DNA from: Gordionus sp. m RMFG-2023
Lineage: Eukaryota; Nematomorpha; Gordioida; Chordodea; Parachordodidae
Reading direction: 5' to 3'
NCBI RefSeq assembly: GCF_954871325.1
Contig: NC_088775.1
Location: 76,113,561 to 76,177,560 of the forward strand
DNA: 64,000 bases
The position numbers and the translations under genes were made by a program. Position 1 is the first letter of the stretch; every line of letters starts with the position of its first letter. Shown one piece after another: positions 485-51,507 of the stretch. Below the pieces are notes generated by a model. The model searched no databases. It was not told where the DNA came from and saw only the letters and a list, made by a program, of their open reading frames with translations.

Positions 485-905
485 ATCCATAAATTCTTAA
501 ATGCCAAAAAGCCTCATTATTTTCATAATAGGAAAATACTTTATCAAAATCTTTGGCCCATATCATCTTGGTCAACTTTAATAATGATAGACAATATTGT
601 AAACTTAAATTTTTAAGATAACCTACCCCCTTTTAACCACTAATAAAACATACTTTAATATGTTTAACAAAATTTGTTAAACCCTTAATCCATAGTTCTT
701 AAATGCCAAAAAGGCTAATTACATTCATATATAGAAAAATATTTTATCAAAATCTTAAGCCCATATCATCTTGGGCAACTTTTAATAATGATAGACAAAG
801 ACAATATTGTAAACTTAAAATTAAAAATAACCTATATGAACCTTTTTTAACCAAATTAAATAATATACTTTAATATGTTTAACAAAATTTGTGTTGAACC
901 CTTTA
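485..905. repeat. Imperfect tandem duplication, about 210 bases
   Basis: Two successive copies of about 205-215 bases. Both contain the shared tracts AAATGCCAAAAAG, CCCATATCATCTTGG, AATGATAGACAA and CTTTAATATGTTTAACAAAA in the same order. The copies differ by scattered substitutions and small indels, so the duplication is not recent. It lies directly upstream of the hAT transposase remnant and may be subterminal sequence of that element. Confidence 0.75.
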
Positions 906-1044
906 TCATTTTTTTGTTTATATAGGTTTTATATTCAGCCTGTACATTGTTTTTTTTAACTTTAAATTTCAATTTTAAAATGAAATTTGATTCAGGAGAA
1001 GTTATTTTCATCCAACTTTGATACATACTATTTTTTTCTTTTAT

Positions 1045-3014
1045 AAAGAAAAAGCACAGTGAATTTAAAAATGAGATTACCAAACATCTCAACGAATTCT
1101 CTACACAAAAAAATATATCACTGCAAAACCAAAGTGGTTCTGGTTGCAAATCCAGACAATCTAAAATAAATTTTAATAATCTAAACATTCCAGCTGTATC
1201 GCAAAAAACAGCAGAAAAGGTTATCATGGATTTTATTATTGACACCTTCCAACCACTGTCTCTGGTTGATGATCCTTCATTTGAAAAAATGATCAAAACT
1301 TTTTCTCCTGCGACAAAAATTATTTGTCGCCAAACACTGGGCAACAGGATATCTTCTTCCTTCTCTTATATGACGACAAATCTTATAAGAGATTTGTCTG
1401 AAGATTCTTATTTATGCAACACTGCTGATTGTTGTGGTCATCGAAGGTATATTATATTTATATGAATTTTATAATGTTATATTTATTAGGGCTTTTATTG
1501 GACTTACTGCACATTGGCTGGATCCGTTAACTCTCAAGAGAAGGTCAGCCGCTTTGGCACTGAGGAGGATAATTGGGAGGCAAACATATGATGTTTTGGC
1601 CTACGAAATCATGGGTATCCACCAGTTCTATAAAATTCATAATAAGGTGGTGAAGATGGTGACTGACAATGGAACCAACTTTGTCAAGGCATTTAAGTAA
1701 TATTTATATTTAGCAAAAAATATTTAAACAAATTTATTTTTTCTAGAGTTTTTGGAGAAAATGAAGAAGATAGCAGTGAGGATATGGAATTGATAAATTT
1801 AGATGACATATTATCAGTTGATGACCCAATTATTCGTACTATCAGCCTACCAAAACATCAACGTTGTTGTTGCCATAATCTTAACCTTATTGCAACAACA
1901 GATGCGGAGATGGCAGATAGTGATCTCAATTATAAACGAATATCTAGATCCACTTTTGCAAAATGTTTTGCTTTAGTTAATAAACAAAATATGTCGTCAA
2001 AAATGGCGGATATTTAATAGCTCCCAACAAGACAAGATGGAATTCTTATTACCAATCCATGAAATTAATAGATAAGATGCTTTCTGAAAAGTTTTCAGAA
2101 GTAGAACAAGTATGTGATCAAATTGGATTTGCAATGTTTAGGCAAGAGGAATGTTTTTTTGTTAAAGAGTATGCAAGAGTAATACAATGATATTCTCTAA
2201 ATAAATTTAAATTTTATAGGTTATGGAACCTTTGGCGATCTCGTTAAAAATCTTGGAACGGGAGGATAATATGGAGCAGGGAATCTAACTCCCGTTCTAT
2301 CGATATTGATAGATAAATTAACGAAATTTAGCTGCCTGCGGTATTGTCAGCTCCTTGTAGATAGTGTTCTTTGTATATTAAGTATTAAGTTAAATTTAAT
2401 CAATATTTATGATATGACCCAAATGTAAATAAATACCATACAGATGATGTGCCAGACTTGACTGTAAAATTTAAAAGGGTTAAGTTTTGCAGATACTTGA
2501 TTTGATTTATATGAATAAAATGAACACTTATTTAATAATAAATTAAATTATCATTTCATAATATAGATTTTCTTCACTGTATGAAGACTGTAACATTTTG
2601 GCAGCCATGATTCACCCTAAATTTAAACTTAATTGGCCTTATATTAATATGCCACAAAATATGATGGTAAAAGAAAGATTAGTTGCCCATTTATAAAATA
2701 TGCAGGAACAACCATATGCGGATACCTCAAATGAATGTATGGATGACATTGATGCTTTTTTTGGGAAAAATACTGTACAAAATGCTTGTTCCGTTAAATT
2801 TTTTTTATTCAAATGATGATTCCATGAATATTTTTAATACTTATATTAATTTAAAAAAAATATTTATTGAATATAATACACCTTTGCCATCAAGCGCTCC
2901 TGTGGAGTGCTTGTTTAGTAAAGCTAAACATGTCTAAATGAAAGACGTGGATGTTTAAATGATGATAATTTAGAAAAATTTTTATTATTAAAAGCTAATT
3001 TTAATTATAAATAA
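1045..3014 (+). pseudogene. Decayed hAT transposase with small introns
   Basis: Remnant of a hAT-superfamily DNA transposase. The middle part reads CCGHRR/AFIGLTAHW, then RRSAALALRRIIGRQTYD and VTDNGTNFVKAFK, the typical hAT block around the second catalytic aspartate (D in TDNGTNF). The C-terminal dimerisation block PLPSSAPVECLFSKAKHV lies near 2882-2934. Three introns of 41-50 bases with GT-AG ends fit the frame: 1447-1489, 1697-1746 and 2179-2219. The coding sequence is broken by a stop near 2015, frame changes around 2270-2330 and an AT-rich insertion before 2560, and no start codon could be fixed. The 3' flank to about 3286 is rich in GATCG motifs and ends GGTTAACAAGCCTG, a possible terminal repeat whose left partner was not found. 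Confidence 0.75.
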
Positions 3015-3286
3015 ATATATTATAATTGTTATATTTATTATTCAATTACAATAAATTTCTACCATATTTAATTTATTTTTATATTAGTTAATTTTGCATC
3101 GGTTATATTATATTATTATTCAATTACAATAAATTTATAACATATATTAGTTAATTTTGCATCGGTCAGAAATTTCCTTCAGAAATTTAAATAGAAAAAT
3201 AGGTCGATCCTGGATTTCGATCCTCATTTTTTGAAAAGATCGTGATCGGGATTCGATCGTTTTAAAAAGATTGGTTAACAAGCCTG

Positions 3287-3618: not shown

Positions 3619-4082
3619 TTCCCCCTCTTCTACAAAGAACAAAGCTTCTTCTCAACAGTCATCGAGAGCTTGTTGTCCTATAAGTTTTTTCCCGTTTCGA
3701 TTGTATTCGATTTCTTCTTGGTTAGCGCATAAGTCTCAAATGTTCTCGTAGGCTTGATTCTATCACGTAGGTTTGATAAAATCGTTTATTAGAGTTGCGT
3801 GAGTTTGTACGTTTTTTTGTAGGCTTGATATCCTTATCGTATGTTGTTCACATTTCTCAAAATTGTTATCATCATTAATCCAGTTGAATATTGGAATTTG
3901 GAATAAATCGGAATATGTAATTTGGAATAGTTGATCAAATCAAATATATAAATAATATGCACGAATAAAATTTTGAATTTCGGAACAATAAAATATGTAA
4001 TAAGGAATGATAATTTATGGAATAAGGAATAAAATAAGGAATAATAAATCATAATGATTATTACATTATTTTTTAGGTGTTA

Positions 4083-4300
4083 GGTTAATCATAGCGTTTT
4101 ATACTTTTAGCGTTTTATACTTTTAGCGTTTTATACTTTTAGCGTTTTATACTTTTAGCGTTTTATACTTTTAGCGTTTTATACTTTATGCGTTTTATAT
4201 TTTTAGCGTTTTATATTTTTTGCGTTTTACATTTTTTGCGTTTTACATTTTTTGCGTTTTACATTTTTTAGCGTTTCAATATTTGATTAGTAGCGTTTTA
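4083..4300. repeat. 16-base tandem repeat inside the LTR element
   Basis: More than ten head-to-tail units close to TTTTAGCGTTTTATAC, with later units drifting to ATTTTTTGCG. The array produces a hydrophobic reading frame across 4220-4543 that is not a gene. Confidence 0.85.
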
Positions 4301-5039
4301 ATATTTAATTTAATTTATTTTTATTTATTTTTAATCTCCGAGGTTAAAATATGCAAATATTATGCACATTTCCCTCTCTTAAAAAAAAATTTAAATTTCA
4401 CACAATATTTTTCTAAAATAATGATGTTTAATTTTTACATAACCTTTTGTCTTCAAAAGCTTTATTCCAAAAACATTTCTATCATATTAAGTATTACTTA
4501 TAAGGGTTATTTAAATCAATCCCTTTTAATTCATATGTTTTAATTACACTTTAATATATTTAAAATTAAAGTTTTATCTTCTTGTTTAGAATTTATAATG
4601 GTTTATATTTAATTATATCTAAGAATTCATTTTTAGGATTAGTTGTTAATTTACACAATTGGTCATCCTTCAAGAAATCAAAAAATAATATTTCACTAAG
4701 AATTTAAGTAAATAATTTTTTAAAGGCTTTTTGTGTGTTCAAATATATCCATTATGATTTTACATTTTAGTGATTTTAAAAATTTATAACATGCCTTTAT
4801 CCTGGCATAAAATTTTAATTTTTAATAACTTTTCTTCTTACGTGGATTATAATAATAAGTAATCATTTGGTCTCACAAAATAGAATTCATAACCTATCGT
4901 TCAACTTCCATATCAGTTCTTCCTAGGTTGTCACATTAGGTTAGGTGCTGGTTATCATATTCCAGTCCAACATCCAGAGCCGGGACACCATGAAGAAAGA
5001 AGTTTTGCATGAAAGAACGTGCTAAGGTTTGATTCTTGG

Positions 5040-5340
5040 TAATCTCCATAGATTAAGCAATCCACACAATAGGTAGTCAATAGGTAGTCATATAAATAGA
5101 GTCATCTCAATGGATTAAACAATCGTCACAATAGGTAGTCACCACAAAGGTAGTCATATAAATAGTCATCTCATTGGAATAAGCAATCGTCACAATAGGT
5201 AGTCACCACAATAGGTAGTCATATAAATAGAGTCATCTCAATGGATTAAGCAATCGTCACAATAGGTAGTCATATTAATAGAGTCATCTCAATGGATTAA
5301 GCAATCGTCACAATAGATAAGATAGTCATAATAGATAAGG
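5040..5340. repeat. Compound tandem repeat inside the LTR element
   Basis: Four to five irregular units built from AGTCATCTCAATGGATTAAG, CAATCGTCACAATAGGTAGT and short CACAATAGGTAGTCAT insertions. It is non-coding. Confidence 0.8.
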
Positions 5341-5610
5341 TAGTGAATAATATTTGATTCTTTTATAATTTTGTAAATTTGGATAAAATTTTGACTATCT
5401 AAAAGAAAAGTCAAAAATATTTATTTGTCCTTATATCATCTCCAATATCGAACGACGAATTTGATAAGTAATTCGTTTACTTTTTATTTTTACAAAAGAA
5501 ATCAAGGTAAGGATATTTTTTTAATTTTTTTAAACTTTTATTATTTACTTTATTTTATTTTTTTAAAGAGAAAGAAAAACGAAAAACGTACCACCGTTAC
5601 AGGGGCACCA

Positions 5611-5818
5611 TGTAATAAGGTAAAACAATTTTGTTAAATATTTTATTATTCTATCATGTCTAAAAACATAGTATATATATAAAAAAAGTTAATTAAAAAA
5701 TATATAATATCACGTTTTTGTGAATAGTTAAATTATATCAAACACATCAATTTATAATATAAGATTAACTATTCAAATTTAAGATTAATTCTTTAAATTT
5801 ATATATGATCAATCAACA
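5611..5818 (-). repeat. LTR (5' by inferred orientation)
   Basis: Second copy of the terminal repeat, 208 bases, flanked outside by ATGAG and inside by a possible tRNA primer site on the minus strand. Confidence 0.85.
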
Positions 5819-5823
5819 ATGAG

Positions 5824-6235
5824 GCATTAGAATGAGGTAAGGAGAAGACATACTCGCATATTTTTCCCAAGCATGGGGAAATTATACGCATTTTTCCTCT
5901 GCTTTTAGACCATCTAACTTTAAGTATTTTGGCGAATCATAAAAAATAGAGAGGATTACAATCTCCTCAAACAAGAAATCAATGTCTTTCGGTATTTTTA
6001 ATATATTTATTAAATTATAAAAACCATCAATTGATGGTTTCTGTTCCAAGGTCATAATATTTATACATTTGTCAATAGAGTTATTAAAATCAAATTTTGA
6101 TTGTAAATATTCTAAATTTGATCTAATTGTTACAGTATAAAATATTCTTGATTGCTGATATAAAAAAAATTTGCGTCTAAAAATTACAAGTGATAAAAAA
6201 GATAATATATTCATACATATGCCACAATTGATAAA
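5824..6235 (-). pseudogene. hAT transposase remnant, inner piece
   Basis: The minus strand contains FDFNNSIDKCINIMTLEQ and FEEIVILSIFYDSPKYLK, which closely match FDFNNSIYKCINIMTLEQ and FEEIVIFSIFYDSPEY in the hAT element at 24.8-25.3 kb. It is a second, truncated copy of the same transposase family, and upstream parts are missing. It continues into 3287-3407 once the LTR insertion is discounted. Its nearest gene is SLU7, which starts about 260 bases to the right on the opposite strand. Confidence 0.75.
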
Positions 6236-6499
6236 TGCAATAATATAATTCTTAGCAACTTACATTGACAAAAGGTTATGAAACTAATATAAATCTTTGT
6301 TACCATTTTAGACTTTGTTCATAGATTGAATTATTTATAATTTTAATATATCTAACTTATATCGAATATCATATCAAAAATTTATAAAATCACATGAGCT
6401 TTGACAGGATCAATCGTACTTTTAGAAATTGCAGTACGATTAAATTTTCAAGACTGGAATTTAGATTAAATCTTTACACCAATATCAACCTAGCAATAA

Positions 6500-9400
6500 A
6501 TGTCTTTTACCCCCAATTTACCTGTATCTTATTTGATAAGATCAGCCACACAAGATGATGGTAATACTCGTAAATCAAGGGAAGAATGGAAAAAATTAAA
6601 AGAATTAGAAGAAGCTAGGAAACAAGGAAATGTACCAGCTCAAACGGATGAACAGGGACGGTAATAATTTACAATATGAATACCACGTAATCAATTTTTT
6701 TAGTGACATAAATCCTCATATCCCTCAATATATTGCCCAAGCACCCTGGTATTTTGGTTCTGCCACAGCTACTTTACAACATCAAAGAGAGCAAGAAGAA
6801 AAAATCAAAGAATATCACAAAATTGATACATGGTACCAGAAAGGAATTATATCTGTAATGATATACTTTGATAATGCATATTAATAAAACAAAATTTAGG
6901 AAAAACCAAAAAAATTTAGAAAAGGGGCTTGTGAAAATTGTGGTTCTATGACACATAAAAAAAAAGATTGCGTTGAGGTAAATGATAAATTATATTTGCT
7001 ATATACTATTTAATTTAGCGGCCTAGAAAAATTGGAGCCAAATTTTCAAAAAAGGATTTAGCACCTGATGAAGTTATTATACCTCCTCCATTAGAGAGTG
7101 ATTATGATGGAAAACGAGATAGATGGAATGGATATGACCCATCAGAATATGCAACAGTTGTGAAGGAATTTTCAAAAATAGAAGAGGTGATAACATCTTA
7201 TATTTATATAATTTATTATATATATATCCATCTTTCAATATAACTAATTAAACTTAGGTCAAAAAACTCATCAAAGCTCAAAAATTAGAATCAGAGTTGA
7301 CTCAAATAAATGGTACTAATGAGGAAGAAATAAATGATGATAAAAATGCAAAAGAAACCATCATAAATGCAGTGACTCTCATTGCCGATGAAATTGATGA
7401 AGATTTGGAGGATGAGGATAAATATGCAGATAGTTTTGATATGCCTGGGACAAAACATGACAGCAAACAAAGAATTACAGTCAGAAATTTAAGGATACGT
7501 GAGGACACTGCTAAAGTTAGCTTTCAATTTAATTTGTTGTTACTTTTCTTTATCTGTGAAAATTTATTTAACAATAACTTTTTCTATATGAACTTTTTCA
7601 AATATAATTATAGATATTGACTGATTAGGGGCTACATGTTCAATTATTTTGAAAATAATATCTTTTACCTAATAGTGATAATATTTAAAAAATGTAATAT
7701 TAGATTATTAGACATTTATAAATTTTGTATTTTCAATATTTTTATATTTTCAAAAATTCAAGTATTTGTACAATTTAGACCTGAACTCAGCCTTCTATGA
7801 CCCCAAAACAAGATCCATGAGAGCAAATCCATTTGCCGATGCCAAATCTAACCCAAATGAGTATTACATCTAATTAATAAATAATTATTTATATGATTTA
7901 AATTAGTCCATACGTTTTTTATTTACTATAACTTTTTTTCATTCCTTATAAATTAATCATCTAATTAAAAATATAGGTATTATATAGCTAAATAACTCAT
8001 TAAATATTTTTAAATCCCTTTATTATTATATATAAGATAACCAAAAAATAATATATGAGTTTTATTAAAACATTATAAATAAATAAAATTTTCCTTATTT
8101 AGATATAATATAAAACTATACAATCATAAAATAAGAAAGAACATTGATAATATTAATATCAGATTGGATTAGTTTTTTATAACGATTGGTGTTCAATTTT
8201 CAATTAAATTGTTAGTATTAGTTCCAATCCAATATTAAATATCAGCACTAGAGATTGGCCCAGCTCAAACTGACATGCGGAAATTTTAAGATTTTTTAGA
8301 TTGGGTCTTAAATATGAAGTAATAATACATATTTTAGTCTAATTTTAAACAAAATAATGACCTGACCCTAAAATATTCTGCAAGCTACCTTTTAATAGGG
8401 CTCTGCTGATCCACAAATGTTCACCAATCCTATATTACTACAAAACCGACTGATAATTGATTTTATTTACCATCCATATTTGAATAAATACTATAAAATT
8501 AATATTTTTTATTCAAAAAAAACTTTCACAAATTATTAAGTATATTTTCTTTCTATTATTCTCAAAAAGTTAATTACCTCATTTAAAATATGGGACACCT
8601 CAATTTAGCCTATTTTTAAAAATGGCTATCAAGATTTTAGCCAAAACATAGTACCTAAGCCTCGAAATTTTGACAATAGATGCCCAAACCTTTTTGCTAA
8701 CTGTAGGCAAAATCACCAAGCTTGGATAATTTATATTTGGCTTAATCTTGAGTTAAAGATATTTTAAAATCATTTTCTAGTTGTAGACATAACAAAAAAA
8801 AATTATTTAATTTTTAGTAAGAGTTTACCAATAACACTTTTTGGAGGGCGATCCAAATTTCAATGGATATCAGCTGACCTAGATCCGATATCATACCTGA
8901 TTGTATTTTATATATATTTAATTTTTAAGTTCTTTATACATATTTAATTTTTTAATGTGTAAAAGTATGCAAAATATTTTTATTAATAAATCATTTATTT
9001 ATATAGAATTAGACAAATACTAATAAACTTTAAATTAATATATTGATGATATTTTTTCAGAAATCAAAATTTCTAGTTTATCTGAGGTCAGCCACTTCCA
9101 TGAAGACTTTGATGATACATTTGTGGAAGGTGAATATTGGTTCTTTGAAATAACTTTCAATTTCAAGGGAATAAAGGCAATTTTTGATGGTATTGTTAAT
9201 TAAATAGACCCTTCATCTGCTTTAACTTCATCAGCATAAGATCCCCATAAAGTAAATATACCAATTGAATTGGGCAGATATTGATGGAATTTCTTCTATG
9301 TCAATGATTTTTTATAATACTATATAAATAATAAAACAATATTTGAATAAATTCTGATGTAGACTGTAGAATTAATTTCCTCACAACAGTTGCTGTTAAT

Positions 9401-12400
9401 GCATTGTAGAAGTAATTATCCAAAGTTATTGATAGAAAGTAAATTTTCCCATTGCAAATATAAGAATAATTTATAGTGATTTTTATACAGCAAATTCATA
9501 GTCTGGACTCTTTTATCATGCTCACTATGATTATCAAGTTCTTTTTAAGTAATTCTATGATGGGGATAACATACTAATTGATGCATTTTCTCCACTAATT
9601 TCTTTTATAATGCACTGAATTGATAATAAAATCACCTAATTTTTTTTTAAAATAACCAAGACGTTTTATTTGTATCAGCAAAGCTTTATATTTTCAGTTG
9701 ATAACCGATATTTTTAAAATGATATCAGTACATCTCTAATTTATAGCTTCTATATATTTTAAAATATTCAATTTTTTAAACATTACAAATAAATTGAATT
9801 TTGATTCCTTTTATGAATTATATTATTATAAAATTATGTATAAAATAAAAGATATTTATTATATAATTATATATACAATCATAATATAAAAAACAATGAT
9901 AATATCGAATCGGTTTTTTCAAAATATAGGCCCAATCCGATATTAAATATCGGAACAGCCCTACTTTTTATTCTACATGAAAGAAAAATTTTAGACTATT
10001 TTTTATATATCCTAGTCTATAAAATACATGTAAAAAACATGGCTAAAAATAAAAAATATATTCAGTATTTTTTTATTGCATTTTAATAATAAAATTATCC
10101 TCAAGTCTAGAACGGTGATCAGGAAGTATAAGTTTTGCCTTACCAAATAATCGCTCATAGCACTTGAGGGCAATGTGGTATTTATTTCTAAACTTTTTAT
10201 TTAAGAAAAACAATTATCCCGGTGACATGACGCAGCGAGGATCGGAAAATCATGTTTTTAGATTTAAAAAATGTGTTAAAAGGATTTATTAACTATTGTA
10301 TATTTTCGTTCAATATTTTGGTCAACCTCCAATAGCCTATTTAGCCGCTCTGGCTTATATAAGATTAGAGCAGAAAGACTTTATTTTATCTTAATAACTT
10401 AACAACCTTCAGATGTAAGAGACATCTGATAGATCTAAAAGGTTCTGATTTCTTGAAAATTATCCAAATTCTTGCTATCACTTTTGCATTAAAGTTCTCT
10501 TGGTACCAAGAGATAATGTAATCAGAGGGAGAAATAAGGAATTTTGACAAAAGAAATTGGCTAAGCGTTATCAATCATATAATTAAATTATAACCTTATC
10601 AGCTAATTTTTAAGAAGCACCTGGTTCTGATGTTGTTGAATTAATCAACTTACTTTGAATTATTTATTGGGTGTAGTCTCTTCTAGTGTACCAAAATGAT
10701 CAAGATATTTTTCAATTTTTCTAAAATTTTAGGTGTATACATTCTAAATGTAAAACCATAGAAAATAATTTTAATTAAAATTTATGAATAATATATTTTG
10801 ATATGTTGAAGCAGTTGATTTATTGGATGATATTTTATACATCTAAATTTAAATCTTGAATTAATATTTTTTATTAAGTTTAAAATTATTTAAATTTCAA
10901 AATTTATATTTAAAGATTATAACATTAAAATTATAAATAAATTTTAGTTTTTTTATAGTATATATATTTATTAAATATTTTGGAGTAGCGAAGCAGCACA
11001 CTATTTAGCTACTCTCTAAAAGGGAACGTGCTATCACTATTATTTTTTAAAGTAGGACGCTATAAAGCTCTGCTACTATAAAAATAGTCACACTACTTTA
11101 ACAACTGCTTAACTGTAACTAGTTACTTTTCAAAAGTAATCTTGACAACACATATTATTTCTTAATAATAAAAAAGGAATCAGAATTAAATTTATATTGT
11201 CATGTTTTAAAAAAAATCTAATTTTTCTATAAAATAAGTAGCTAAAAAATATAGTTTTTGGTGGGATATAAAATATACTTAACGAACCACAATCAGCCAT
11301 AAACATTGTTCAATATATTAAATGCGATTATTGACCTTTGAGGAATTTAATAAACAAGTATACTTATCTGTGATGATGCTTCAAATATCACCTTGGCTAC
11401 AAGAAACGGAAAATTTAAAGTTGTTTCTTTTCTTACCCGTAGCTTATAGTTAGTAAATAAAAATCAATCAGAATATCAGTTTGGTTATGGGATAGGTTTG
11501 TGTAAGAATATTAGAAATGAATTGGGTCCGATTTAGGAAGAATTTATTGGTCAGCACATCCTTATACATTTTGATCTTGGGCTTAAAATAATAGTTGTCA
11601 TTTAAAAAGAACCTTTTAGCAACCTTAGCATTATTTATGATAAGGACATATTTATATATGTTCTTATAATAACCCGATTGCTTATTTTTTGCCTCTCTAA
11701 ATTTAATTTAAATTGCATAATGATTTTTTATTTAAATAAAGATTGAAATATGCTGGAGATAATTTCATAAGGTATACCGGTGATACACCTAACATTGCCA
11801 AACAACAATGTAAGTTAAAAATTATTTGTATAATTCTCACTTTCTTAAAAATTTTTTTCTTATAGTTTAATGTTTTAAAAGTATTGTTGATAGTTAGACC
11901 TCTGCATTGCAGGCTCACGAAGTTGAGTATAACCATTTGACAGGCTCGCTGCCAATTTTTAATTTGGGTTTTTTTTGGAGGATGATAAAAAATTTATAAT
12001 TTTATTATAGGGTTGGACACAGAAAACTCTTATAATAATGATGAAACCAAGTGTGCCCAAAGAAATTATATAAAAATACATTGATTTATAAATTAATTTC
12101 ATTTATTAAAAAATTTAAAATATGCCACTGCACCACCAATTTATTAGGTGGTGGCGAATTTGGCATGCTTACAGCAACACGTGAAAAATAAAATAAATCG
12201 CTCTCCTATTTATATTTTTGGGCAGATGTTTATTGATAATAAATATTTATAAATATGCCCTGTGTTCTTTATTGTAATCAGAGACCTTCTGGCCTCTGAA
12301 ATTCTTTATTTTTAAATACAAACCATGGACTTTGCCTAAAAATATTTTAAGAAAATAGACCTGAGCCCAACCTAATTTATAAAATAAAAATTTAAATTAT

Positions 12401-15400: not shown

Positions 15401-18400
15401 TTAGGTTCGGTTCAGGTTCGATAAAAAATACCGGTTTTTAGCGGTTTAACGGTTCGGTCCAGATTCGGTTTGGATCCCTGGTTATAAGTAGCAAACATAT
15501 CAATTGGCCCCCTTATTTATACTTATTTTAAGCAAGTAAGGTTTTCTGGATCTCACCAAATAATAAGTGAATTTATTACAATTTGTCCAAAATTTTGTAA
15601 ACAACCTATCTATATTTTAATTGATAATTTTTTTTCCACCATCATTTTAGTCTGTATGGGGATCTTTTTGGTATCAACAATGTTGGGGTTACAAATGCTG
15701 TAATTCATTCGTTAAACAATCTTATTGCATGGGGGAAAAAGGATTACAATTATTCAAAGTAAATATTGTCGAATAAAAATGTTTGTTCAGTTTGTTATTA
15801 CTCATTATAATAATGTTAAAATTGGATTTTAAAAATGCTATCAAAAATATTATTATTAAAAATGTACTAAACTGGGTTTTTTCTATATTTAGACTCGACC
15901 GCTTATGGCAAAATGGTCGGTTTTTTTGCCGGTGTTCTTTTTAAAAAAAATATATATTTATTAATATTTACTCCTTGTCTCTAATTTAAATCTGAAACTT
16001 AATCAACGAAGTACTTATACCAAGTTACAACATTAAATTTTTTTAATGGTAAGAATGAGATTCTGAATCTCTTTTATAAATCATTTATTGACGGACGATT
16101 TTTATCATGCTATTTTTTACAGGAAATAAATTTTGGCATGTATAGAATACCTACTGCATACATTTTTTTATTATTTAATTTATATCAAAAATCTTATGAT
16201 ATAAAAAATTAAAGATGAAACCTCAAACAAACGTTGTTTTTCCTATTTTTTATTGCTATTACGATCCTTATGGATATACCTTGTCAGCATTTTATTGCAA
16301 ATTTTTTATCATTAAAATTAGGAGTCTACCGATACCAATTTTTGGAAGCCGATTTGATATTGCTGATATCTAGATATCGGCCAATTACCAATTTAATAAC
16401 ATTCATTTGATTTTATTTATACATATTTATTATATTTTTATTTTCAAAAATATACTATATCGAATTTAAATTATATTTTAAGCTAGACTTATTTATATAT
16501 TCATCAAAGAAAAATATGTAAACATTGATAAATCATCTATTTATATAGTAAAATCGTTGTAATCTTTTTTTGTTCCAAAAGTCTTTCTATTGTGTATCAA
16601 GTTTATCATGATCAATATAAAGTGTATTTTTTTAAAATTATTTATTAAGTTTATAAATCATAAAATTCTATCAATTTAAAAATTTAATTAGACGCCATTT
16701 AATCAGATCTAATCGGTAAATTTAATAATCAGCCGCTAACCGATATTTTAAAAGAGACGAAAAATCGGCCGATCCAATAAAAGATATCTATATCTTACAA
16801 TCATCTATACCAAAACTTATTTCAAATTTTTTATTATCGCAATCAAATTATAATTTGCTCATTCATTTTGTTAAAAAAAATTCGGATATGACTTTTTTAA
16901 TTTTAATTTAAAAACGATTGCAATTTATAAAATAAGGTACCATATGCATTAAAATAAAATACATCTAAAAAAATGAAAATTTTATAATAAAAAATGTTAA
17001 AATACGCGAAAAGGTGCCTCTAGGTAATGACACCGTTGATTCATATATTATGTGACCTACATATTTCAATTGAAATTCGTTGACGCCTTTCCGAGGATAA
17101 CCCGAAATTAAAAGCCGGCTCTGGTTCCAAAAGCACCGATTGTATCAGAAACATCGGGGATTAAAGTGATATTAGGAATGTTAATATATTTATTTATTTT
17201 TATAATTTCCGCGCTTACCAAAGAGGAGCTAAAGGATAGTGCAAAACGATCAACGCATGTATAATCCTGGCATAGCGGGATACCGTCCATGGAATGAGTG
17301 TCTTATGTTGTCTCAGAAATTAGGGGTCCTACGGGTTCCGACGTTGATGGAACATTGGTTGGGCGGACAGTTCTAACAATATAATTTACTGCTTGGTGGC
17401 TTGAATGGCGGCCTTAAGCGACAATGAAGAGGATGATAGCCTAAGTAGGCAGGGAGTGAACAGAATTTGCAAGATAAGGTTGACGATATCATAGCCTAAA
17501 CCAAGGCTTGTTCCCATCGAATTCTTCTTTGAAAAGAAGCAAACCAAGGTTAGAGCTAGGAATAGCCTTGAGCCATTTATAACCTAAATTTAATTGTTGA
17601 TGGGGAATTTATACTTTGATTTATTGGGGAGGTGATATCTTGGTTAGATCGAGAAAAGACCCTTCATTCATCGCTCGAGTAAAACGATTCAACTTAATCC
17701 TGGATTAAAGGTAATTCCCAGTCTTGCTGTTTGGAGTAAAGACAAGGGAGAATTTGAGACGTTTGACCTCCATGGGTCCGGGGCCAACCTCAGTTGGGTA
17801 TGTGGTGATAAATAATGTTAATAATTGGTTGACTTTTGGTGACAAGAGAAAAGCTGCAAATTTCAGTGAGTCAGGAATTTTATTTTTTAATAATTATTTT
17901 TTTAATGGCTAAAATTTGTTATACTGATTTAAAGCTTATTTTTTTTATCCCCTTTTTTATATGTGAAAACAAAATTTTTTTTTTTTGTTTTTTAAGTTTT
18001 TTTTCTCGTTTTTTAAATCCATAATTGAAAATAAAAATTAGTTTAAAAGTTTACTGCAGAATTTTCTGAAGATTTGCAGGATAGGGACTCTATACATGCT
18101 GGGATTCACTTTCGGTAAAATCAAATTTCTAAAATTAAAAAATCGAACTCCCTAAATAGTAGTGTTGTTAAAACGCCGCGAGTCGCGACCCCGACCCAAA
18201 GCTCGGGTCGTTTTAGACTCCGACTCAATGTTTGGGTCGTTTTTTTCGACTTCGACCCGAGTTCAAGCCGAAAAAAACGACTTCGACCCAAAATATGGGT
18301 CGTTTTTTTCGACTCCGACCCAAGTCCAAGCCGAAAAAAACGACCTCGACCCAAAATATGGGTCGTTTTTTACGACTCCGACTCAAAATTTGGGTCGTAT

Positions 18401-21400
18401 TTTTCGACTCAAACTTGAAATTTGGGTCGTATTTTTCGACTTAAACTTGAAGTTTGGGTCATATTTTTCGACTCAAACTTGTAGTTTGGGTCGTATTTTT
18501 CGACTCCAACTCAAAGTTTGGGTCGTTTTTCTGACTCAGACTCAAACATCGTGTCGTTTTATTCAATCGACCCAAAATATGGATCTTTCTTTTTAAAGAC
18601 GACTTAAAGTTAGGGTTGCTTTTTTTCACCCCTAACCCAATATCTAGATCATTTTTTTCGACCAAAAGTCAAATAACATTATATTAATATTATAGGCGGG
18701 AAAGTTATTTAAAGCTTCTTTAAAATAATGCTCTGATTAACTATTCATCATAGTTATATTTAAAAATTTTTAAGTGATGTACCATAGAAAAGTGCCATTT
18801 GTCATGATAATTATTTTTGAGCTTTTTTAAATGAAATAGATAAAAATATATATTTTAGACATGTTAAATCAAAATTTCAGTGATGATGTACCATAGATAA
18901 GTGGTAATTGTCATAATCGCTATTTTTGAACTTTTTTGAGTTTTTTTAAAGCAAATTGCTAAAAATATATATTCTAAACATGTTAATTAAAAATTCAGTG
19001 AGGATGTATCATAGATAGGTGACAATTGTCATAATCGCTATTTTTGAACTTTTTTCAATTTTTTTAAAGGAAATAGCAAAAAATATATATTCTAACCATG
19101 TTAAATTAAAAATTCAGTGAGGATGTATCATAGATATGTGACAATTGTCATAATCGCTATTTTTGAACTTTTTCAAATTTTTTTAAAGGAAACATCTTAA
19201 AATATATATTCTAAACATGTTAAATTTAAAATTCAGTGAGGATGTATCATATATAGGTGACAATTGTCATAATCGCTATTTTTGAACTTTTTAAAATTTT
19301 TTTAAAGGAAATATCTAAAAATATATATTCTTAACATGTTAAATTAAAAATTCAGTGAGGATGTATCATAGATAGGTGACAATTGTCATAATCGCTATTT
19401 TTGAATTTTTTCAAATTTTTTTAAAGGAAATAGCTAAAAATATATATTCTAAACATGTTAAATTAAAATTTCAGTGAGGATGTATCATAGATAGGTGACA
19501 ATTGTCATAATCGCTATTTTTAAACTTTTTCAAATTTTTTTAAAGGAAATATCTAAAAATATATATTCTAAACATGTTAAATTAAAAATTCAGTGAGGAT
19601 GTATCATAGATAGGTGACAATTGTCATAATCGCTATTTTTGAACTTTTTCAAATTTTTTTAAAGGAAATAGCTAAAAATATATATTGTAAAGATGTTAAA
19701 ATAAAATTTCAGTGAAGATGTACCATAGAAAAGTGACAATTGTCATAATCGCTATTTTTGAACTTTTTTCAATTATTTTAAAGGAAATAGCAAAAAATAT
19801 ATATTCTAAAAATGTTAAATTAAAAATTCAGTGAGGATGTATCATAGATATGTGACAATTGTCATAATCGTTATTTTTGAACTTTTTCAAATTTTTTTAA
19901 AGGAAACATCTTAAAATATATATTCTAAACATATTAAATTTAAAATTCAGTGAGGATGTATCATAGATAGGTGACTTTAACATGTTTAGAATATATATTT
20001 TTAGCTATCTCCTTTAAAAAAATTGAAAAAAGTTCAAAAATAGCGATTATGACAATTGTCACCTATCTATGATACATCCTCACTGAATTTTAAATTTAAC
20101 ATGTTTAGAATATATATCTTTAGATATTTCCTTTAAAAAAGTTCAAAAATAGCGATTATGACAATTGTCACCTATCTATGAAACATCCTCACTGAAATTT
20201 TAATTTAACATGTTTAGAATATATATTTTTAGCTATTTCCTTTAAAAAATTTGAAAAAGTTCAAAAATAGCGATTTTGACAATTGTCACCTATCTATGAT
20301 ACATCCTCACTGAATTTTTAATTTAACATGTTTAGAATATATATTTTTAGATATTTCCTTTAAAAAAATTTCAAAAATAGCGATTATGACAATTGTCACC
20401 TATATATGATACATCCTCACTGAATTTTTAATATAACATGTTTAGAATATATATTTTTAGCTATTTGCTTTAAAAAAATTGAAAAAAGTTCAAAAATATT
20501 GATTATGACAATTGTCACCTATCTATGATACATCCTCACTGAATTTTTAATTTAACATGTTTAGAATATATATTTTTAGATATTTCCTTTAAAAAAATTT
20601 AAAAAAGTTCAAAAATAGCGATTATGACAATTGTCACCTATCTATGATATATCCTCACTGAATTTTTAATTTAACCTGTTTAGAATATATATTTTTAGCT
20701 ATTTCCTTTAAAAAAATTTGAAAAAGTTCAAAAATAGCGTATATGACAATTGTCACCTATCTATGATACATCCTCACTGAATTTTTAATTTAACATGTTT
20801 AGAATATATATTTTTAGATATTTCCTTTAAAAAAATTTGAAAAAGTTAAAAAATAGCGATTATGACAATTGTCACCTATCTATGATACATCCTCACTGAA
20901 TTTTTAATTTAACATGTTTAGAATATATATTTTTAGCAATTTGCTTTAAAAATACTCAAAAAAGTTCAAAAATAGCGATTATGACAATTACCACTTATCT
21001 ATGGTACATCATCACTGAAATTTAGATTTAACATGTCTACAATATATATTTTTATCTATTTCATTTAAAAAAGTTCAAAAATAATTATCATGACAAATGG
21101 CACCTTTCTATGGTACATCACTTAAAAATTTTAAAATATAACTATGATGAATAGTTAACCAGAGCATTATAATTTAAAGAAGCTTTAAGTAACTTTCCCG
21201 CCTATAATATTAATATATACTAAATGTTATTTGACTTTTGGTCGAAAAAAATGATCTAGATAATTGGGTTAGGGGTGAAAAAAAGCAACCCTAACTTTAA
21301 GTCGCCTTTAAAAAAAAGATCCATATTTTGGGTCGGATTGAATAAAACGACCCGATGTTTGAGTCTGAGTCAGAAAAACGACCCAAACTTTGAGTTGGAG

Positions 21401-22309
21401 TCGAAAAATACGACCCAAACTTCAAATTTGAGTCGAAAAATACGACCCAAACTTCAAGTTTTAGTCGAGAAATACGACCCAAACTTCAAGTTTGAGTCGA
21501 AAAATATGACCCAAACTTCAAGTTTAAGTCGAAAAATACGACCCAAATTTCAAGTTTGAGTCGAAAAATACGACCCAAATTTTGAGTCGGAGTCGTAAAA
21601 AACGACCCATATTTTGGGTCGAGGTCGTTTTTTTCGGCTTGAACTCTGGTCGAAGTCGTAAAAAACGACCAAAACTTTGAGTTGGAGTCGAAAAAACGAC
21701 CCAAAATTTGGGTGAGCTCTGTTCGAGCCGACTCGGCTAAGCCGATTAACAACACTACTAAATAGTTTAAAGTTGAGAATTCCAAATCACCACAGAAGGA
21801 TTCCAGTGTAGTCGTCATTCTAGATTAACTCACAACATATCGTCAGCTATGAATTATAATGTTCTATATCCAATTTTTTAAAAAAATATTGTATTTTAGA
21901 TTAAGAGATCACAGGGAAATAATGATTATTTTAAAATTATATTTTAAACATTTTTATTGATAACACAGTATTGAAGGAATGAGTTATTAAAAAAAAGTGA
22001 ATATAGAACACTATAATACTCAGCCGATGATATATATTATATTGTAAATAGAAAATTAATAGTTGATCATTACAAATTATATTTAAAATATTGAATACTG
22101 TCGATTTTTTTTAAGATCTCTAATAATTGTATTAAAATCTAATCTCAAAAAAATTAATTAATTTTTTATTACCCTATTTATTTTTAAAACGAATTAAATA
22201 ATCATTCATATTTTTTGTTAAATAGGAAAGATTGGAAAATGAAGCCGATGAAAATCAAACTCAGAACGAATTTGAAAATCGAACCTCTAAAAGGATAAAA
22301 ATAACATGA
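6500..22309 (+). CDS. SLU7: Pre-mRNA-splicing factor SLU7
   Basis: SLU7 is a nuclear second-step splicing factor that holds the 3' splice-site AG during exon ligation. Eleven exons join in phase: 6500-6660, 6704-6854, 6900-6977, 7019-7186, 7258-7515, 7763-7860, 11742-11809, 13224-13420, 14386-14490, 15651-15758 and 22226-22309. Together they give 491 codons plus a stop. The start ATG precedes the conserved [18 protein letters not shown] segment. The CCHC zinc knuckle [14 protein letters not shown] is at residues 115-128. It is followed by [45 protein letters not shown] and [14 protein letters not shown], all in family order. The protein is shorter than vertebrate SLU7 (about 586 residues) because the tail is brief and ends KRIKIT. 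The last exon is the least certain, since it follows a 6.5 kb intron and extra small exons could be missed. Four of the introns are only 41-71 bases. Confidence 0.93.
8120..9970. repeat. Degenerate repeats with CCAATCCGATATTAAATATC ends
   Basis: Similar tracts occur at about 8203-8250 and 9895-9960: each has a GATAATAT(T/C)-type lead, then AATCCAATATTAAATATC or AATCCGATATTAAATATCGG. Related CCGATATC motifs occur near 8885 and in 16310-16800. They look like the ends of old insertions in the SLU7 intron, but boundaries cannot be set. An open stretch at about 9061-9190 between them resembles nothing I know. Confidence 0.4.
8600..8770. mobile_element. Degenerate MITE of the TAGTGTTGTTAA family
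   Basis: The interior TACCTAAGCCTCGAAATTTT and the following ATGCCCAAACC match the middle of the MITE at 29458-29674 (CCTAAGCCTCGAGATTTCG). The terminal repeats are eroded. Confidence 0.45.
10073..10192 (-). pseudogene. hAT transposase C-terminal scrap
   Basis: About 39 codons on the minus strand read [19 protein letters not shown] then [14 protein letters not shown] and end in a stop. This is the end of the hAT dimerisation domain (family pattern SSERLFSKAG followed by RRNRL). No other part of the transposase is visible nearby. It lies in the large SLU7 intron on the opposite strand. Confidence 0.6.
10200..11741. other. SLU7 intron sequence, nothing firm
   Basis: AT-rich intron DNA. A patch at about 10980-11105 with repeated TAGC(T/G)AC motifs resembles one at 26020-26095 and may be an old repeat. 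No coding or RNA signal is supported. Confidence 0.4.
12630..12970. repeat. Old repeat with GGTCTGCAATGGGCGGG end
   Basis: It begins AGTGGTCTGCAATGGGCGGG and contains several CCCACCC, GCCCGC and GGGTTGG tracts in otherwise AT-rich DNA. The first motif recurs in reverse complement at the end of 28360-28800 (CCCATTGCAGACCGC), and the GGGCGGGC motif recurs at 37800-38060. I infer one dispersed repeat family. The far end of this copy is unclear. Confidence 0.5.
13421..14385. other. SLU7 intron 8, nothing recognised
   Basis: AT-rich intron between exons 8 and 9 of SLU7 with no repeat or coding signal that I can support. Confidence 0.5.
14579..15480. mobile_element. Non-autonomous hAT element, copy 1
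   Basis: 902-base element with terminal inverted repeats: CAGGGATCCAAACCGAAACG at the left and GGTTTGGATCCCTG at the right. Both ends carry runs of GGTTCGG-type subterminal repeats. The 8 bases GTTATAAG are duplicated on both flanks (14571-14578 and 15481-15488), the hallmark of hAT transposition. It holds no coding sequence. A 127-base internal segment is perfectly duplicated in tandem (15081-15207 and 15208-15334). It lies in intron 9 of SLU7. The second copy is at 48591-49442. Confidence 0.9.
16310..16800. repeat. Diffuse repeat with CGATATC / GGCCGAT motifs
   Basis: Motifs GATATCTAGATATCGGCC near 16362 and AATCGGCCGATCC near 16763 suggest inverted ends of an old insertion, with CCGATACC near 16328. 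No target duplication could be identified. Confidence 0.35.
17090..17910. other. GC-richer patch, possible decayed coding sequence
   Basis: About 800 bases with clearly higher GC than the surrounding intron. It lies inside the last SLU7 intron. No uninterrupted gene is present. The plus strand reads [19 protein letters not shown] in one frame near 17693-17750, and the neighbouring frame just upstream reads [11 protein letters not shown]. Together these faintly recall the C-terminal beta strands of a mitochondrial porin, but the resemblance is too weak for a call. The minus strand has an open stretch at 17108-17290 that I do not recognise. A decayed gene copy or an old repeat would both fit. 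Confidence 0.3.
18770..19972. repeat. Tandem array of about 117-base units, left arm
   Basis: About ten units share GATGTATCATAGATAGGTGA, CAATTGTCATAATCGC and ATATATATTCTAAACATGTT. The spacing measured between neighbouring units is 117 bases. GACAATTGTC inside the unit is itself a palindrome. Confidence 0.9.
19973..21130. repeat. Tandem array of about 117-base units, right arm
   Basis: The same unit as the left arm in reverse orientation, about nine copies. One unit near 20341-20400 is shortened. The outermost unit of each arm is the most divergent. Confidence 0.9.
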
Positions 22310-35005: not shown

Positions 35006-35225
35006 TAGTGTTGTTAATCGACTCGTTTTGAGCCGAATTTTAAAAACGTCTAACTTAATATTTTAGCCAGATAAATATTGCCTAATCCTCAAGATTACAA
35101 TATATGTCTGGATCTTTGTTCCTTCTATGAGCAAAATCTTCAGCCTTGGGTAATATTTGTCAGGATGAAGTATTGAGTTAGCCGTTTTTAAAAATTGGCT
35201 CAAAACGAGCCGTTTAACAACACTA
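35006..35225. mobile_element. MITE, TAGTGTTGTTAA family, intact ends
   Basis: 220 bases. Left end TAGTGTTGTTAATCGACTCG, right end CGAGCCGTTTAACAACACTA. CAACACCC is duplicated at 34998-35005 and 35226-35233. The arms pair over about 50 bases, and the middle carries CTAATCCTCAAGATT, as in sister copies. It has no coding capacity. It lies just 3' of the GM2-activator-like gene. Confidence 0.9.
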
Positions 35226-47116: not shown

Positions 47117-50100
47117 TGAGATTAGGGTTTATTCCGCACATATCAATCAACGTATCCATCCTGATAGGGTCTAAGCCATTACCCTCTTTGAATTCGACGT
47201 AATCCCTTCTGCCTATTTGGAAGCACTTACAAAAATATAAAAATATATGATGAGATATTTAATAATTTTTATACAAAAATATTTTTTCTGTTTTTTTTGA
47301 ATAAATAATTTGGATTGAAATTGTTATGGCATTGTGTCATCCTTCAAAATTTAGCACTTTTATTTATTTTCTCGGGAAAAATAATATGCAATATGTTTGA
47401 TTTAAAACCTGCAAAATTAAAATTTAATCATTATAGATAATATATCACTATATAAATTGTTTGAAAATTGAAGTTCCACTTTAATTTAATTAATCAAATC
47501 AAATTAATAAAGTTTTCTATATATTTAGTTGATCTTGATTCCTAAAACTACTAATTTATTGATAAAAGTAACTCTTTTATTCATTTGGAAAAAGAAGAAA
47601 TCTTTTAACTGATAAAAGAAATGTATAACTAATTAATATAACTTAATGTGCTAAACTATAATGATTCATACTTTAGAAGTTTCTTTTTCCGATCTGTATA
47701 GCGGAGTAAATTTGGCCCCCATCATATTCCTTTTGAGAACAAATCTTCTTTTATATATAAAATTTGGATAATCGTCCAACCCATTTTGGTTTAAATTCTT
47801 AACTCTTTCTATAGGTTCTACCTTCGACTCATCATCATTTATAGTTGTTTTGGATCTATTGTTGTTTAAAGAGTATTTCAAGTATTTATAATTGGATTCT
47901 AGTGTATTATCGCCTATTTTCAATTTTCTGATTAATACTTTTTCTGGGTAGATTATGCTCAAGGAGCAATTTACTTTATTGCCGTAGTTTCTCAGGGTAT
48001 GCTGCCCGATGGGGGACATGGCTACCGCGTTACACGCTGTTATGTTTTTTTAGATAGTGCATAAAATATTATTAGCAAATATATAAATTCTAACAAATAT
48101 TTAAAGGATCTTAAAGGAAAGTAAGGCAAAGTTAAAGGTAAAATATAGGAAACAAGAGAAAATATAGAAATTTAAAGAAAAGAAGAAAAGAAGAAAATCT
48201 TTTTTTAGAAAATGATAACGTCTTGGGTTAGGAGTGATTTCTATATCGGCAATAAAACCCTGCCCGGGCCCTGTAACTCTAAATTGTATCTGAGCAACGT
48301 TTTGTGAGCTCACAAACACGTATTCTGGATAAAAATCTCTAACTGGCATGCAAAAGGGTTTTAAATTGTCGACGTCGTATTTCGTATCTGCCGTAGAAGG
48401 GAAAAACTCATCTTGCATTTCCCAACCATCAATTACCTTGTGATTTTTAGCATAATTTTTTTAAAGATATTATGATGAATATAAATTTTTCGATATTGTG
48501 AAATACTATTTAAAACATCAGATTGATTGGTTCATTGACATTGCCAATATTATCAATTGAACAAGTATACATCTAAAATTACAAAAAAATCAGGGATCCA
48601 AACCGAAACGAATATCGGTTCAGGTTCAGGTTCGGATAAAAATAACGGTTCAAGGTTCAGGTTCGGTTCGCCAAAAATAAAAATATCGGTTCGGTTCGAA
48701 CCTCTAAAAACCGATTTGAACATTTTTGTATTCAAACCTACATTAGAATTATGTATAAGGAAAATTTTTTTTTAATTTCATAATTAAAATAAAAACCTTC
48801 ATTTTATTAATTGCACATTATAAAATAATATTATTTATAAATATAACAAAAAAATATATCATAATTTTAATATGTACAATTACTTAATTTTTTTTTATTA
48901 AGCTGCACAATTAATATATTTTCAAAATTCGTCTCACTCAAATTACATCTATTAGGAGATAATATAAATTTATTTGTTGAAAAACATCCTCCCACACTAA
49001 CTTGGGTAGCTGGCATTGCCAGTATGATATCAGATTTGATGTGTCATTTATAAAACTATATGTAAAAATTTATATATTAGATTTAATTTTTTTCTAGGCA
49101 TTATAATTTATAAGCTTAAAATATTTAAAAAATATTGTAAAATGGCAATATACTAAAGTTTATAAAAATTATGACTGACGTTTATCAATCAAATGTGATT
49201 GATAATAATTTTTAAAACAATTTGAATATAATTAATATTTTTGCAATATACTACTAGTAAAAACTTACACATTATTTTATAAGCATAAAATAATGAGACT
49301 CGAACCGGTTCAGAGGCATTTTAGTGGTTCGGTTCAGGTTCGGCTAGAAATTTTTTAGAGGTTTAGGTTCGGTTTAGGTTCGATAAAAAATACAGGTTTT
49401 TAGCGGTTTAACGGTTCGGTTCAGGTTCGGTTTGGATTCCTGAAAAAAATCATGTATATTAATTTTTTATTTAAATATAAAAAATTCTTGAGGTTTTTAT
49501 TCAATTTCACTTAACTATTTAAATTTAAACTCACTTAAATTTGGCAGCGTGTAATATGCGGTTTTTTAATTTTTTTAAATTTAAAATTAGTCTTTTTTTT
49601 TGCTTTAAAAAAGATAGTAGAAATACTTTAATAATAAAACTGGGAAAAACCATATTTAAAGCTATTTTTAATATAAAAATGTAGGGGTTTATTAAATCTA
49701 GGCTCTTAACAAATTTTTAAATACCTAAATCTTTTATGGTGGACGTTTTTAAATTTTAAAAGATTTGAATTCTTCAGGAATCTTATTCCAGCATGTACAG
49801 AAAATGTATGCCTGCCTCGCCAATTTCGACAATTTTGTCGTGAAATTTCCAACTATACTTTATTTATAATTAATTTTTGATATATTAGACTTTACATTGC
49901 AAATTTGATAATACTATTGACGAAATTGTCTAAAATTCGATGATCGGCAAAACCAGATCTATTTAAAATTTTTTTTTAAAAACGCACTCTATAAATGATT
50001 TAAGTTTTAAAAATTATATTTAATATATACACTAAATAATTTGTTGTTATAAAATATAAGTAGTTGTAAGGCAAAAAAATATCCAGTTATTCGCTTAGCG

Positions 50101-51421: not shown

Positions 51422-51507
51422 ACTTTTTTATTATAATTTTTTACATATGAAATTATTTAATTACAATTACGATATATATTTAATATAGTACGAAACAAAA
51501 ATTTATA

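What the first reader, a model, noticed from the sequence alone, without database searches (positions are those of the whole stretch)
18160..21757. 3.6 kb giant foldback with nested satellite arrays and hAT-type ends
The element is a nearly complete palindrome flanked by the 8-base duplication CTAAATAG. Each arm contains about 32-base GGGTCG units and then about 117-base units in mirror order. The ends match ordinary 220-base MITEs, so a hAT-type MITE appears to have grown into a large hairpin that carries satellite DNA inside a conserved splicing-factor intron. The units contain the small palindrome GACAATTGTC. This points to a MITE-driven route for seeding satellite arrays.
Basis: partly seen in the sequence, partly recalled or inferred. 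Interest (0 to 1): 0.75.

Follow-up and report, generated by a model that had tools for sequence, protein, structure and literature searches.

The report
Giant foldback hAT transposon in hairworm
The 3.6-kb palindrome is a recently copied, gene-less offshoot of a very large jumping gene in a horsehair worm, whose long mirror-image arms are packed with repeated DNA and even carry a mirrored piece of the jumping gene's own enzyme.

Summary
Window 18160-21757 is a nearly spacerless palindrome with a perfect 8-bp duplication (CTAAATAG). Its ends recur across a 287-Mb genome that matches Gordionus sp. m RMFG-2023 (Nematomorpha): 395 left-end and 668 right-end pattern hits, none with the reversed control. 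Of 32 copies checked at both ends, 29 have a perfect 8-bp duplication, two have one mismatch, and one has none. It does not look like a MITE grown large. Giant copies with the same ends carry a hAT transposase gene (two examined, 13.2 and 14.9 kb). In the one read in full, the arms are inverted copies of the element's 3' part, including the last ~69 transposase codons. The window copy belongs to a hairpin subfamily with one shared central junction (57 genome hits). Its 119-bp arrays vary in length; one case shows block duplication. Of 14,586 satellite-core hits, the 100 that were placed all lie in elements, so no free satellite was seen. This is a hAT counterpart of Galileo and Tetris foldbacks. 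Close transposase pairs here are inverted (8 of 8), echoing the phylum's published mitochondrial palindromes; that link is speculative.

The parts
18152..18159 (.). left target-site duplication CTAAATAG
18160..18171 (+). 12-bp terminal inverted repeat TAGTGTTGTTAA, left
18160..18193 (+). left-specific terminus (34 bp, outside the arm-to-arm alignment); 395 genome hits to its first 20 bases (up to 2 mismatches), 0 in the reversed control
18187..18577 (+). left 32-bp GGGTCG/CGACCC array
   Evidence: TRF 18187-18546; last CGACCC of the left arm at 18568
18578..18822 (+). left linker between the two arrays
   Evidence: arms 18725-18993 and 20902-21170, 97%
18823..19975 (+). left 119-bp satellite array, about 9.7 units
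19966..19991 (+). central junction GATAGGTGAC|TTTAACATGTTTAGAA where unit orientation flips (between 19975 and 19976); present, with up to a few base changes, in the 19 complete short copies printed and in L036; 57 genome hits with up to 3 mismatches, 0 in the reversed control
19976..21081 (-). right 119-bp satellite array, inverted, about 9.5 units
21082..21276 (-). right linker
21277..21710 (-). right 32-bp array, inverted
21714..21757 (-). right-specific terminus (44 bp, outside the arm-to-arm alignment); 668 genome hits to its last 25 bases (up to 3 mismatches), 0 in the reversed control
21746..21757 (-). 12-bp terminal inverted repeat, right
21758..21765 (.). right target-site duplication CTAAATAG

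Best explanation
The feature is a non-autonomous foldback copy of a hAT-superfamily DNA transposon. SHOWN: on contig C1 exact end pairs span 1.3 to 14.8 kb; giant copies hold a hAT transposase gene between the arms; in the one giant read in full (big1, 13.2 kb) the long arms are inverted copies of the element's 3' part and include the last ~69 codons of the transposase; at least two kinds of derivative lack the transposase, one 6.5-kb copy whose centre was read, and the spacerless hairpins to which the window copy belongs; all hairpin copies examined share one central junction; on average the two arms of a copy are no more alike than arms of different copies; satellite arrays differ in length between copies, one longer array is a block duplication of another, and two insertions share the same array lengths. 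INFERRED: transposase made by giant copies acts in trans on the 12-bp end plus the GGGTCG-rich subterminal repeats, cutting out and inserting hairpin copies with 8-bp duplications; the inverted duplication arose once on this lineage by a repair or replication template switch; internal deletions then made the short kinds; the 32-bp array multiplies transposase-binding sites, as published for Galileo tandem repeats.
For: Ends and duplications, 32 copies: of 20 fetched 10-kb loci, 18 show matched ends with a perfect 8-bp duplication, as does the window copy; L035 (big1) was completed and is perfect; 9 of 10 further large end pairs are perfect and one has 1 mismatch; L023 has 1 mismatch; L036 has none. 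The 29 perfect duplications favour S-T-Y-A-T-R-A-S: Y at position 2 in 24 of 29, R at position 7 in 24 of 29. Copy lengths on C1: 64 of 93 exact left ends pair with an exact right end in correct orientation within 30 kb, 1,339-14,769 bp, median 5,343; one of these pairs is wrong, because the true partner of 22921904 is a variant right end at 22917627. Transposase: PF05699 E=1.9e-23 and Hermes (6dww) E=1.4e-11 on the last exon, PF14372 E=2.4e-5 just below its cut-off; 22 of 150 listed genome matches are at least 96% identical, 15 of these with a 289-aa open frame without stops. Arms of big1: 2263-3271 vs 10093-9087 at 96.9%, breakpoint inside the last transposase exon, stop-to-stop 8923-9294. 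Hairpin founder: the junction is in the same phase in the 19 complete short copies (chosen as the closest relatives of the window's left arm) and is present in L036; 57 genome hits, 0 control. Arm test on 20 copies: left-right identity 96.26% within a copy vs 96.15% between copies; left-left 99.1%, right-right 98.2%. Transposase-less copy L067 joins big1 position 3732 to 9705. Array growth: the L032 left array is the L031 array followed by 13 more units that repeat it.
Against: No transposition was seen. One copy (L036) has both ends and the hairpin junction but no duplication: 4 of 8 flanking bases differ. The first transposase ORF (289 aa) has no Pfam match, the gene model with its introns is by eye, and the frame of big1 itself is interrupted. 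On C1, of 6 transposase copies at least 96% identical, 3 lie inside an exact end pair, 2 have one exact end in the right place, and 1 (C1:90936521) has none (my comparison). Only one giant was read in full. 29 of 93 exact left ends on C1 found no exact right-end partner. In the arm test 3 of 20 copies (big1, L029, L039) have their own two arms as the closest match, so some homogenisation is not excluded. The 119-bp arrays have no known role. GGGTCG as a binding site is untested; the better conservation of termini than of satellite in three diverged copies (86-93% over bases 21-120 vs about 78%) is biased because those copies were picked by an exact end.
Confidence: 0.88

Rival explanations
1. 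A 220-bp hAT MITE grew into a large hairpin by capturing and amplifying internal sequence.
For: The 220-bp MITEs in the window have nearly the same 12-bp ends and 8-bp duplications.
Against: Beyond 12 bp only a CGGCT/GAGCCG theme is shared (by eye). Giant copies with exactly the foldback ends carry the transposase, and one arm of the giant read in full holds an inverted piece of that gene, which a MITE would not supply.
Confidence: 0.04
2. Assembly artefact: one arm is a duplicated or chimeric read product.
For: No reads could be examined; fold-back chimeras are a known artefact type (recalled).
Against: Arms of a copy differ by about 2.5-5% over the outer ~670 bp and by about 9% over the whole window element; the same junction occurs 57 times; 29 copies have their own perfect 8-bp duplications; copies L031 and L033, with different duplications, have the same 16/9 unit counts and 15 left-array units at least 99% identical.
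Confidence: 0.02
3. The spacerless hairpin is not a deletion of the giant form but a separate inverted duplication of a shorter relative, and the giant and hairpin are sister lines.
For: Inverted duplications with other breakpoints exist: C1:5.13 Mb has transposase in both arms at 98.7% inside an element with a perfect duplication.
Against: Left- and right-specific termini and array order are the same in hairpin and giant; L067 shows that simple internal deletion of a giant-type copy does occur.
Confidence: 0.2
4. The 119-bp repeat was a pre-existing genomic satellite that the transposon captured.
For: Transposons and satellites are known to be linked in other genomes (PMC9659126, abstract start in search listings only). 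Most of the 14,586 unit-core hits were not placed.
Against: All of the first 100 exact unit-core hits, in 17 clusters over C1 0-26 Mb, lie inside an element or on the inner side of an exact end. The total is about 22 per right-end hit or 37 per left-end hit, within the 18-40 units counted per short copy.
Confidence: 0.06

Closest known systems
Galileo (P superfamily), Drosophila (PMC4168063 passages; PMC3688188 abstract)
   Same: Long, internally repetitive TIRs; copies with and without the transposase segment; [quoted passage not shown] longest D. willistoni copy 9,021 bp.
   Different: P superfamily, THAP-domain transposase. Here the transposase is hAT, copies reach 14.8 kb and more, two different arrays are nested in each arm, and a longer gene piece (about 69 codons) is mirrored.
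Tetris, Drosophila virilis (PMC4079207; abstract, passages, section 19)
   Same: Foldback with ~220-bp tandem repeats in its TIRs, variable repeat number, shares its extreme ends with a MITE.
   Different: No transposase found there, three structurally complete copies, assigned to Mutator from 8-10 bp duplications; its repeats also form free satellite arrays. Here a hAT transposase is inside the element, end patterns occur hundreds of times, and no free arrays were found in the sample placed.
gadMor-hAT-1784, Atlantic cod (PMC12368964; abstract, passages, section 8)
   Same: hAT-derived element with two ~600-bp TIRs built of 167-169-bp tandem repeats.
   Different: Breakpoint insertions about 1.3-1.4 kb, no ORF in the consensus; here arms are about 1.8 kb (window) to 3-4 kb (big1) and giant copies keep the transposase gene.
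Drosophila FB/NOF and sea urchin TU elements (recalled, no call)
   Same: Foldback arms of tandem repeats; TU recalled as having 8-bp duplications.
   Different: Other or undefined superfamilies; not compared here.
Mu killer, maize (PMC3440606; abstract start in a search listing only)
   Same: Partial inverted duplication of a transposase gene.
   Different: Mu killer is proposed to silence MuDR through hairpin RNA; no RNA data exist here.

Membership tests
hAT superfamily | 8-bp target-site duplication | tested here: met
   29 perfect of 32 copies with both flanks examined (20 fetched loci, the window copy, 10 end pairs, L023); 2 with one mismatch, 1 (L036) without
hAT superfamily | transposase with hAT C-terminal dimerisation domain | tested here: met
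   PF05699 E=1.9e-23; Hermes E=1.4e-11
hAT superfamily | RNase-H-fold DDE core | tested here: inconclusive
   PF14372 E=2.4e-5, 24.9 bits vs cut-off 27; no Pfam match on the first 289-aa ORF; catalytic residues placed by eye
hAT superfamily | short TIR beginning (C/T)A-G (consensus recalled) | tested here: met
   TAGTGTTGTTAA at both ends
hAT superfamily | target preference nTnnnnAn (recalled) | tested here: inconclusive
   T is the commonest base at position 2 (16 of 29) and A at position 7 (17 of 29); both together in 11 of 29, nYnnnnRn in 20 of 29
Foldback-type elements (structural class) | long TIRs containing tandem repeats, variable in length | tested here: met
   8-29 left and 9-20 right units in 19 complete short copies
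Galileo / P superfamily | P-type transposase | tested here: not met
   hAT domains instead
MITE | short (recalled: under about 800 bp) non-autonomous element | tested here: not met
   1.3-14.8 kb among C1 end pairs; window copy 3,598 bp
Satellite DNA | free long arrays outside the transposon | tested here: inconclusive
   none among the first 100 exact unit cores, which all lie in or just inside elements; the rest of the 14,586 hits were not placed
Active transposon | present-day transposition | not testable with these tools
   only indirect: uninterrupted frames in some copies and 97-100% identity of 40 scored left-arm matches

The most novel reading that the evidence does not exclude
Horsehair worms have a general process that builds inverted duplications, acting on nuclear transposons of unrelated superfamilies as well as on their palindrome-rich mitochondrial DNA. 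[quoted passage not shown]
Probability: 0.1. Interest if true: 0.78.

Novelty: new variant of a known kind. Interest (0 to 1): 0.52.

Why it matters
Some foldback elements, such as Tetris, were described without the enzyme that moves them (PMC4079207). Here the enzyme-bearing giant, two kinds of derivative without the gene and the hairpin founder junction sit in one genome, so the steps from ordinary transposon to giant hairpin can be read. It extends the foldback plan, described for Mutator- and P-type elements, to a hAT with its transposase inside, in a little-sequenced phylum. It also offers a case where a satellite-like repeat worth about 1.7 Mb (14,586 cores x 119 bp) appears to have multiplied by riding inside a transposon.

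Tried and rejected
MITE origin: rejected after the transposase-bearing giant was found. Assembly artefact: rejected on recurrent junction, separate duplications and diverged arms, without reads. Strong ongoing homogenisation of the two arms: rejected on the average over 20 copies, though 3 copies rank their own arms first. Free satellite: none in the 100 hits placed. Common descent of the window copy and big1 insertions because both have CTAAATAG: rejected, flanks differ. Intron placement in SLU7: could not be shown; no downstream exon found by eye or motif, and the Pfam search of the genome did not complete. PDB search with the first transposase ORF gave nothing meaningful. Inverted repeats outside the element were only listed for the rest of the window; no genome-wide test was made. 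Structure prediction was not used.
Full report
What is there. The window copy runs from 18160 to 21757 with CTAAATAG on both sides. From outside in, each arm has a terminus of its own (34 bp left, 44 bp right, outside the arm-to-arm alignment) that shares TAGTGTTGTTAA with the other, then a 32-bp array rich in GGGTCG/CGACCC, a linker, and a 119-bp array. The arrays meet at a junction without spacer. The palindrome is far beyond chance.

Host. The best named relatives of the transposase are from Gordionus sp. m RMFG-2023, three of them on a contig of 93,749,283 bases, exactly the length of C1. The taxonomy is Nematomorpha, Gordioida.

Copies. The first 20 bases of the left end occur 395 times with up to 2 mismatches and the last 25 of the right end 668 times with up to 3; the reversed controls give 0. 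On C1, 64 of 93 exact left ends have an exact right end in the correct orientation within 30 kb, 29 do not. Two of the pairs share one right end, and the longer of these two is wrong. I fetched 20 loci, the best hits to the window's left arm after the window itself; 18 have matched ends with a perfect 8-bp duplication. Of the other two, L035 was cut off and later completed (perfect). L036 has a left end at 8997 and a variant right end at 4720 with the hairpin junction between them, but its flanks differ at 4 of 8 bases, so it lacks a duplication; a 223-bp MITE is inserted in it. Ten further large end pairs give 9 perfect and 1 with one mismatch. A short copy among the unselected loci, L023 (1,339 bp), has one mismatch. 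In all: 29 perfect, 2 with one mismatch, 1 without, of 32. One C2 pair with a perfect duplication spans 15.6 kb, with another exact left end nested inside. All eight unselected 3-kb loci (the first exact hits on C1) carry satellite-like sequence; five are close relatives and three (L018, L020, L021) are about 68-79% similar.

The giant. big1 (C1:46062391-46075605, 13,215 bp) carries hAT transposase exons at about 7.5-9.3 kb, in interrupted frames. A second giant, C2:29833303-29848156 (14,854 bp), is 98.7% identical to it over the 3.2 kb of transposase region fetched and has a 289-aa first frame. The genome holds 22 listed transposase matches at least 96% identical among 150 listed, 15 with a 289-aa open frame. 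Where an end is known the geometry is steady: the transposase match starts 7.7-10.0 kb from the left end (8 copies) and ends 3.8-5.9 kb from the right end (6 copies) (arithmetic).

How the arms were made. In big1 the outer ~670 bp of the arms are 96.9% identical, the inner segment 2263-3271 vs 10093-9087 also 96.9%, and the stretch across the arrays 91.9%; one event is the simplest account. The inner breakpoint falls in the last transposase exon, so the left arm holds an inverted copy of about 69 codons. Inside big1, at 4617-4677, lies what looks like an old left end, 87% over 47 bp; I read it, with moderate confidence, as the left end of the element before the mirrored arm was added. Over 20 copies, left and right arms of one copy are no more alike on average than arms of different copies (96.26% vs 96.15%), so the palindrome is mostly inherited, not remade. 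Against this, three copies (big1, L029, L039) have their own arms as the closest match.

How the hairpins were made. The 19 complete short copies printed share one junction at the same phase, L036 also has it, and the 26-base junction occurs 57 times in the genome with up to 3 mismatches. Those copies were selected as the window's closest relatives, so the 57 hits against several hundred ends is the fairer measure: the hairpin is one subfamily. L067, the centre of the 6,478-bp copy C1:26108100-26114577, instead joins big1 3732 to 9705. Ten C1 pairs lie between 6,275 and 6,478 bp, but only this one was read, and L032 (6,374 bp) is a hairpin with long arrays, so length alone does not define a class. 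Both kinds are read as internal deletions of the giant; for the hairpin this is inference.

The satellite. Unit cores occur 14,586 times with up to 3 mismatches, 0 in the control. The first 100 exact hits form 17 clusters, each with an inward-pointing exact end nearby, on both sides for 13 clusters and on one side for 4. The rest were not placed. Arrays change inside elements: L032 repeats 13 units of the L031-type array, and L031 and L033, at different sites, carry the same 16/9 arrays. This supports amplification by transposition plus local block duplication, and gives no sign that satellites were seeded outside elements, though free arrays could be unplaced here or missing from the assembly.

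A wider pattern. Among the 150 listed hAT matches, 8 pairs lie within 6 kb of each other; 7 are head-to-head, 1 tail-to-tail, 0 in the same direction (two-sided binomial 0.008). Two were read: C1:78.40 Mb, a hAT about 47% identical, is a palindrome of over 2.3 kb per arm at 99.8% with transposase in both arms, ends not read; C1:5.13 Mb, a sister of this family at about 80%, has 98.7% arms inside an element with a perfect duplication. The other six were not read. A DDE_3 transposase family gives, among 150 listed matches, 3 inverted and 0 direct pairs that repeat the same part of the protein; the other 18 close pairs are on one strand and look like pieces of one gene. So the excess is not special to hAT. 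Nematomorph mitochondrial genes are known to hold many long perfect palindromes (PMC6649704 abstract; PMC10380579 passages). A common cause is a speculation.

Comparison with print. Galileo shows the same two routes of arm growth, including an end piece of the ORF in both TIRs (PMC4168063 passages), and its tandem repeats hold extra transposase-binding sites (PMC3688188 abstract). Tetris is a foldback whose repeats became a satellite (PMC4079207). The cod hAT MITE has tandem-repeat TIRs (PMC12368964). Five searches of the held library showed no hAT foldback with its transposase inside among the papers listed (2 of 2, 12 of 12, 15 of 21, 12 of 43, 14 of 14; titles and abstract starts, with passages or sections of those cited); that library lacks most subscription journals, so this is no proof of absence. 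Searches on the hairworm genome (1 of 1, 10 of 17, 5 of 6 listed) showed no description of this family in titles or abstract starts; beyond those I read passages of PMC11408602 and PMC10380579 only.

Noticed in passing
window 50993-53277: A second transposon with long TIRs made of 21-bp tandem repeats, TA on both sides, with a DDE_3 transposase (PF13358) on the minus strand inside: the same arm plan in another superfamily (ends read by eye).
   Followed up: partly
L068 1-5000 (C1:78401001-78406000): Palindrome of over 2.3 kb per arm at 99.8% identity with a different hAT transposase in both arms, 214-bp spacer. Ends not read.
   Followed up: partly
L069 1-2000 (C1:5132401-5134400): Sister foldback (about 80% to big1) with transposase in both arms at 98.7%, inside an element with duplication GCTGACAC.
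   Followed up: partly
L036 4720-8997 (C1:22917627-22921904): A hairpin copy with both ends and the shared junction but no 8-bp duplication (4 of 8 bases differ), perhaps a product of recombination between copies.
   Followed up: partly
window 35006-35225 and 53805-54025; L036 8230-8452: 220-223-bp hAT-type MITEs with perfect 8-bp duplications (CAACACCC, GATCAGAT, GTTAGGGG), possibly moved by a related transposase.
   Followed up: partly
window 856-2017: ORFs that look like hAT transposase fragments by eye; no Pfam match for the three plus-strand ORFs tested.
   Followed up: no
window 18152-18159 and big1 flanks (L035/L045): Two unrelated insertion sites share the same 8-bp duplication CTAAATAG; flanks differ.
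   Followed up: yes
C1:88052415-88058872 and C1:88085834-88092291: Two end pairs of exactly 6,458 bp in the same orientation 33 kb apart, perhaps a segmental duplication.
   Followed up: no
big1 4617-4677 (L035 5625-5685): Decayed internal left end, possibly the ancestral terminus.
   Followed up: partly
window 48104-48460: ORF matching corticotropin-releasing-factor binding protein, PF05428 E=5.7e-8.
   Followed up: no
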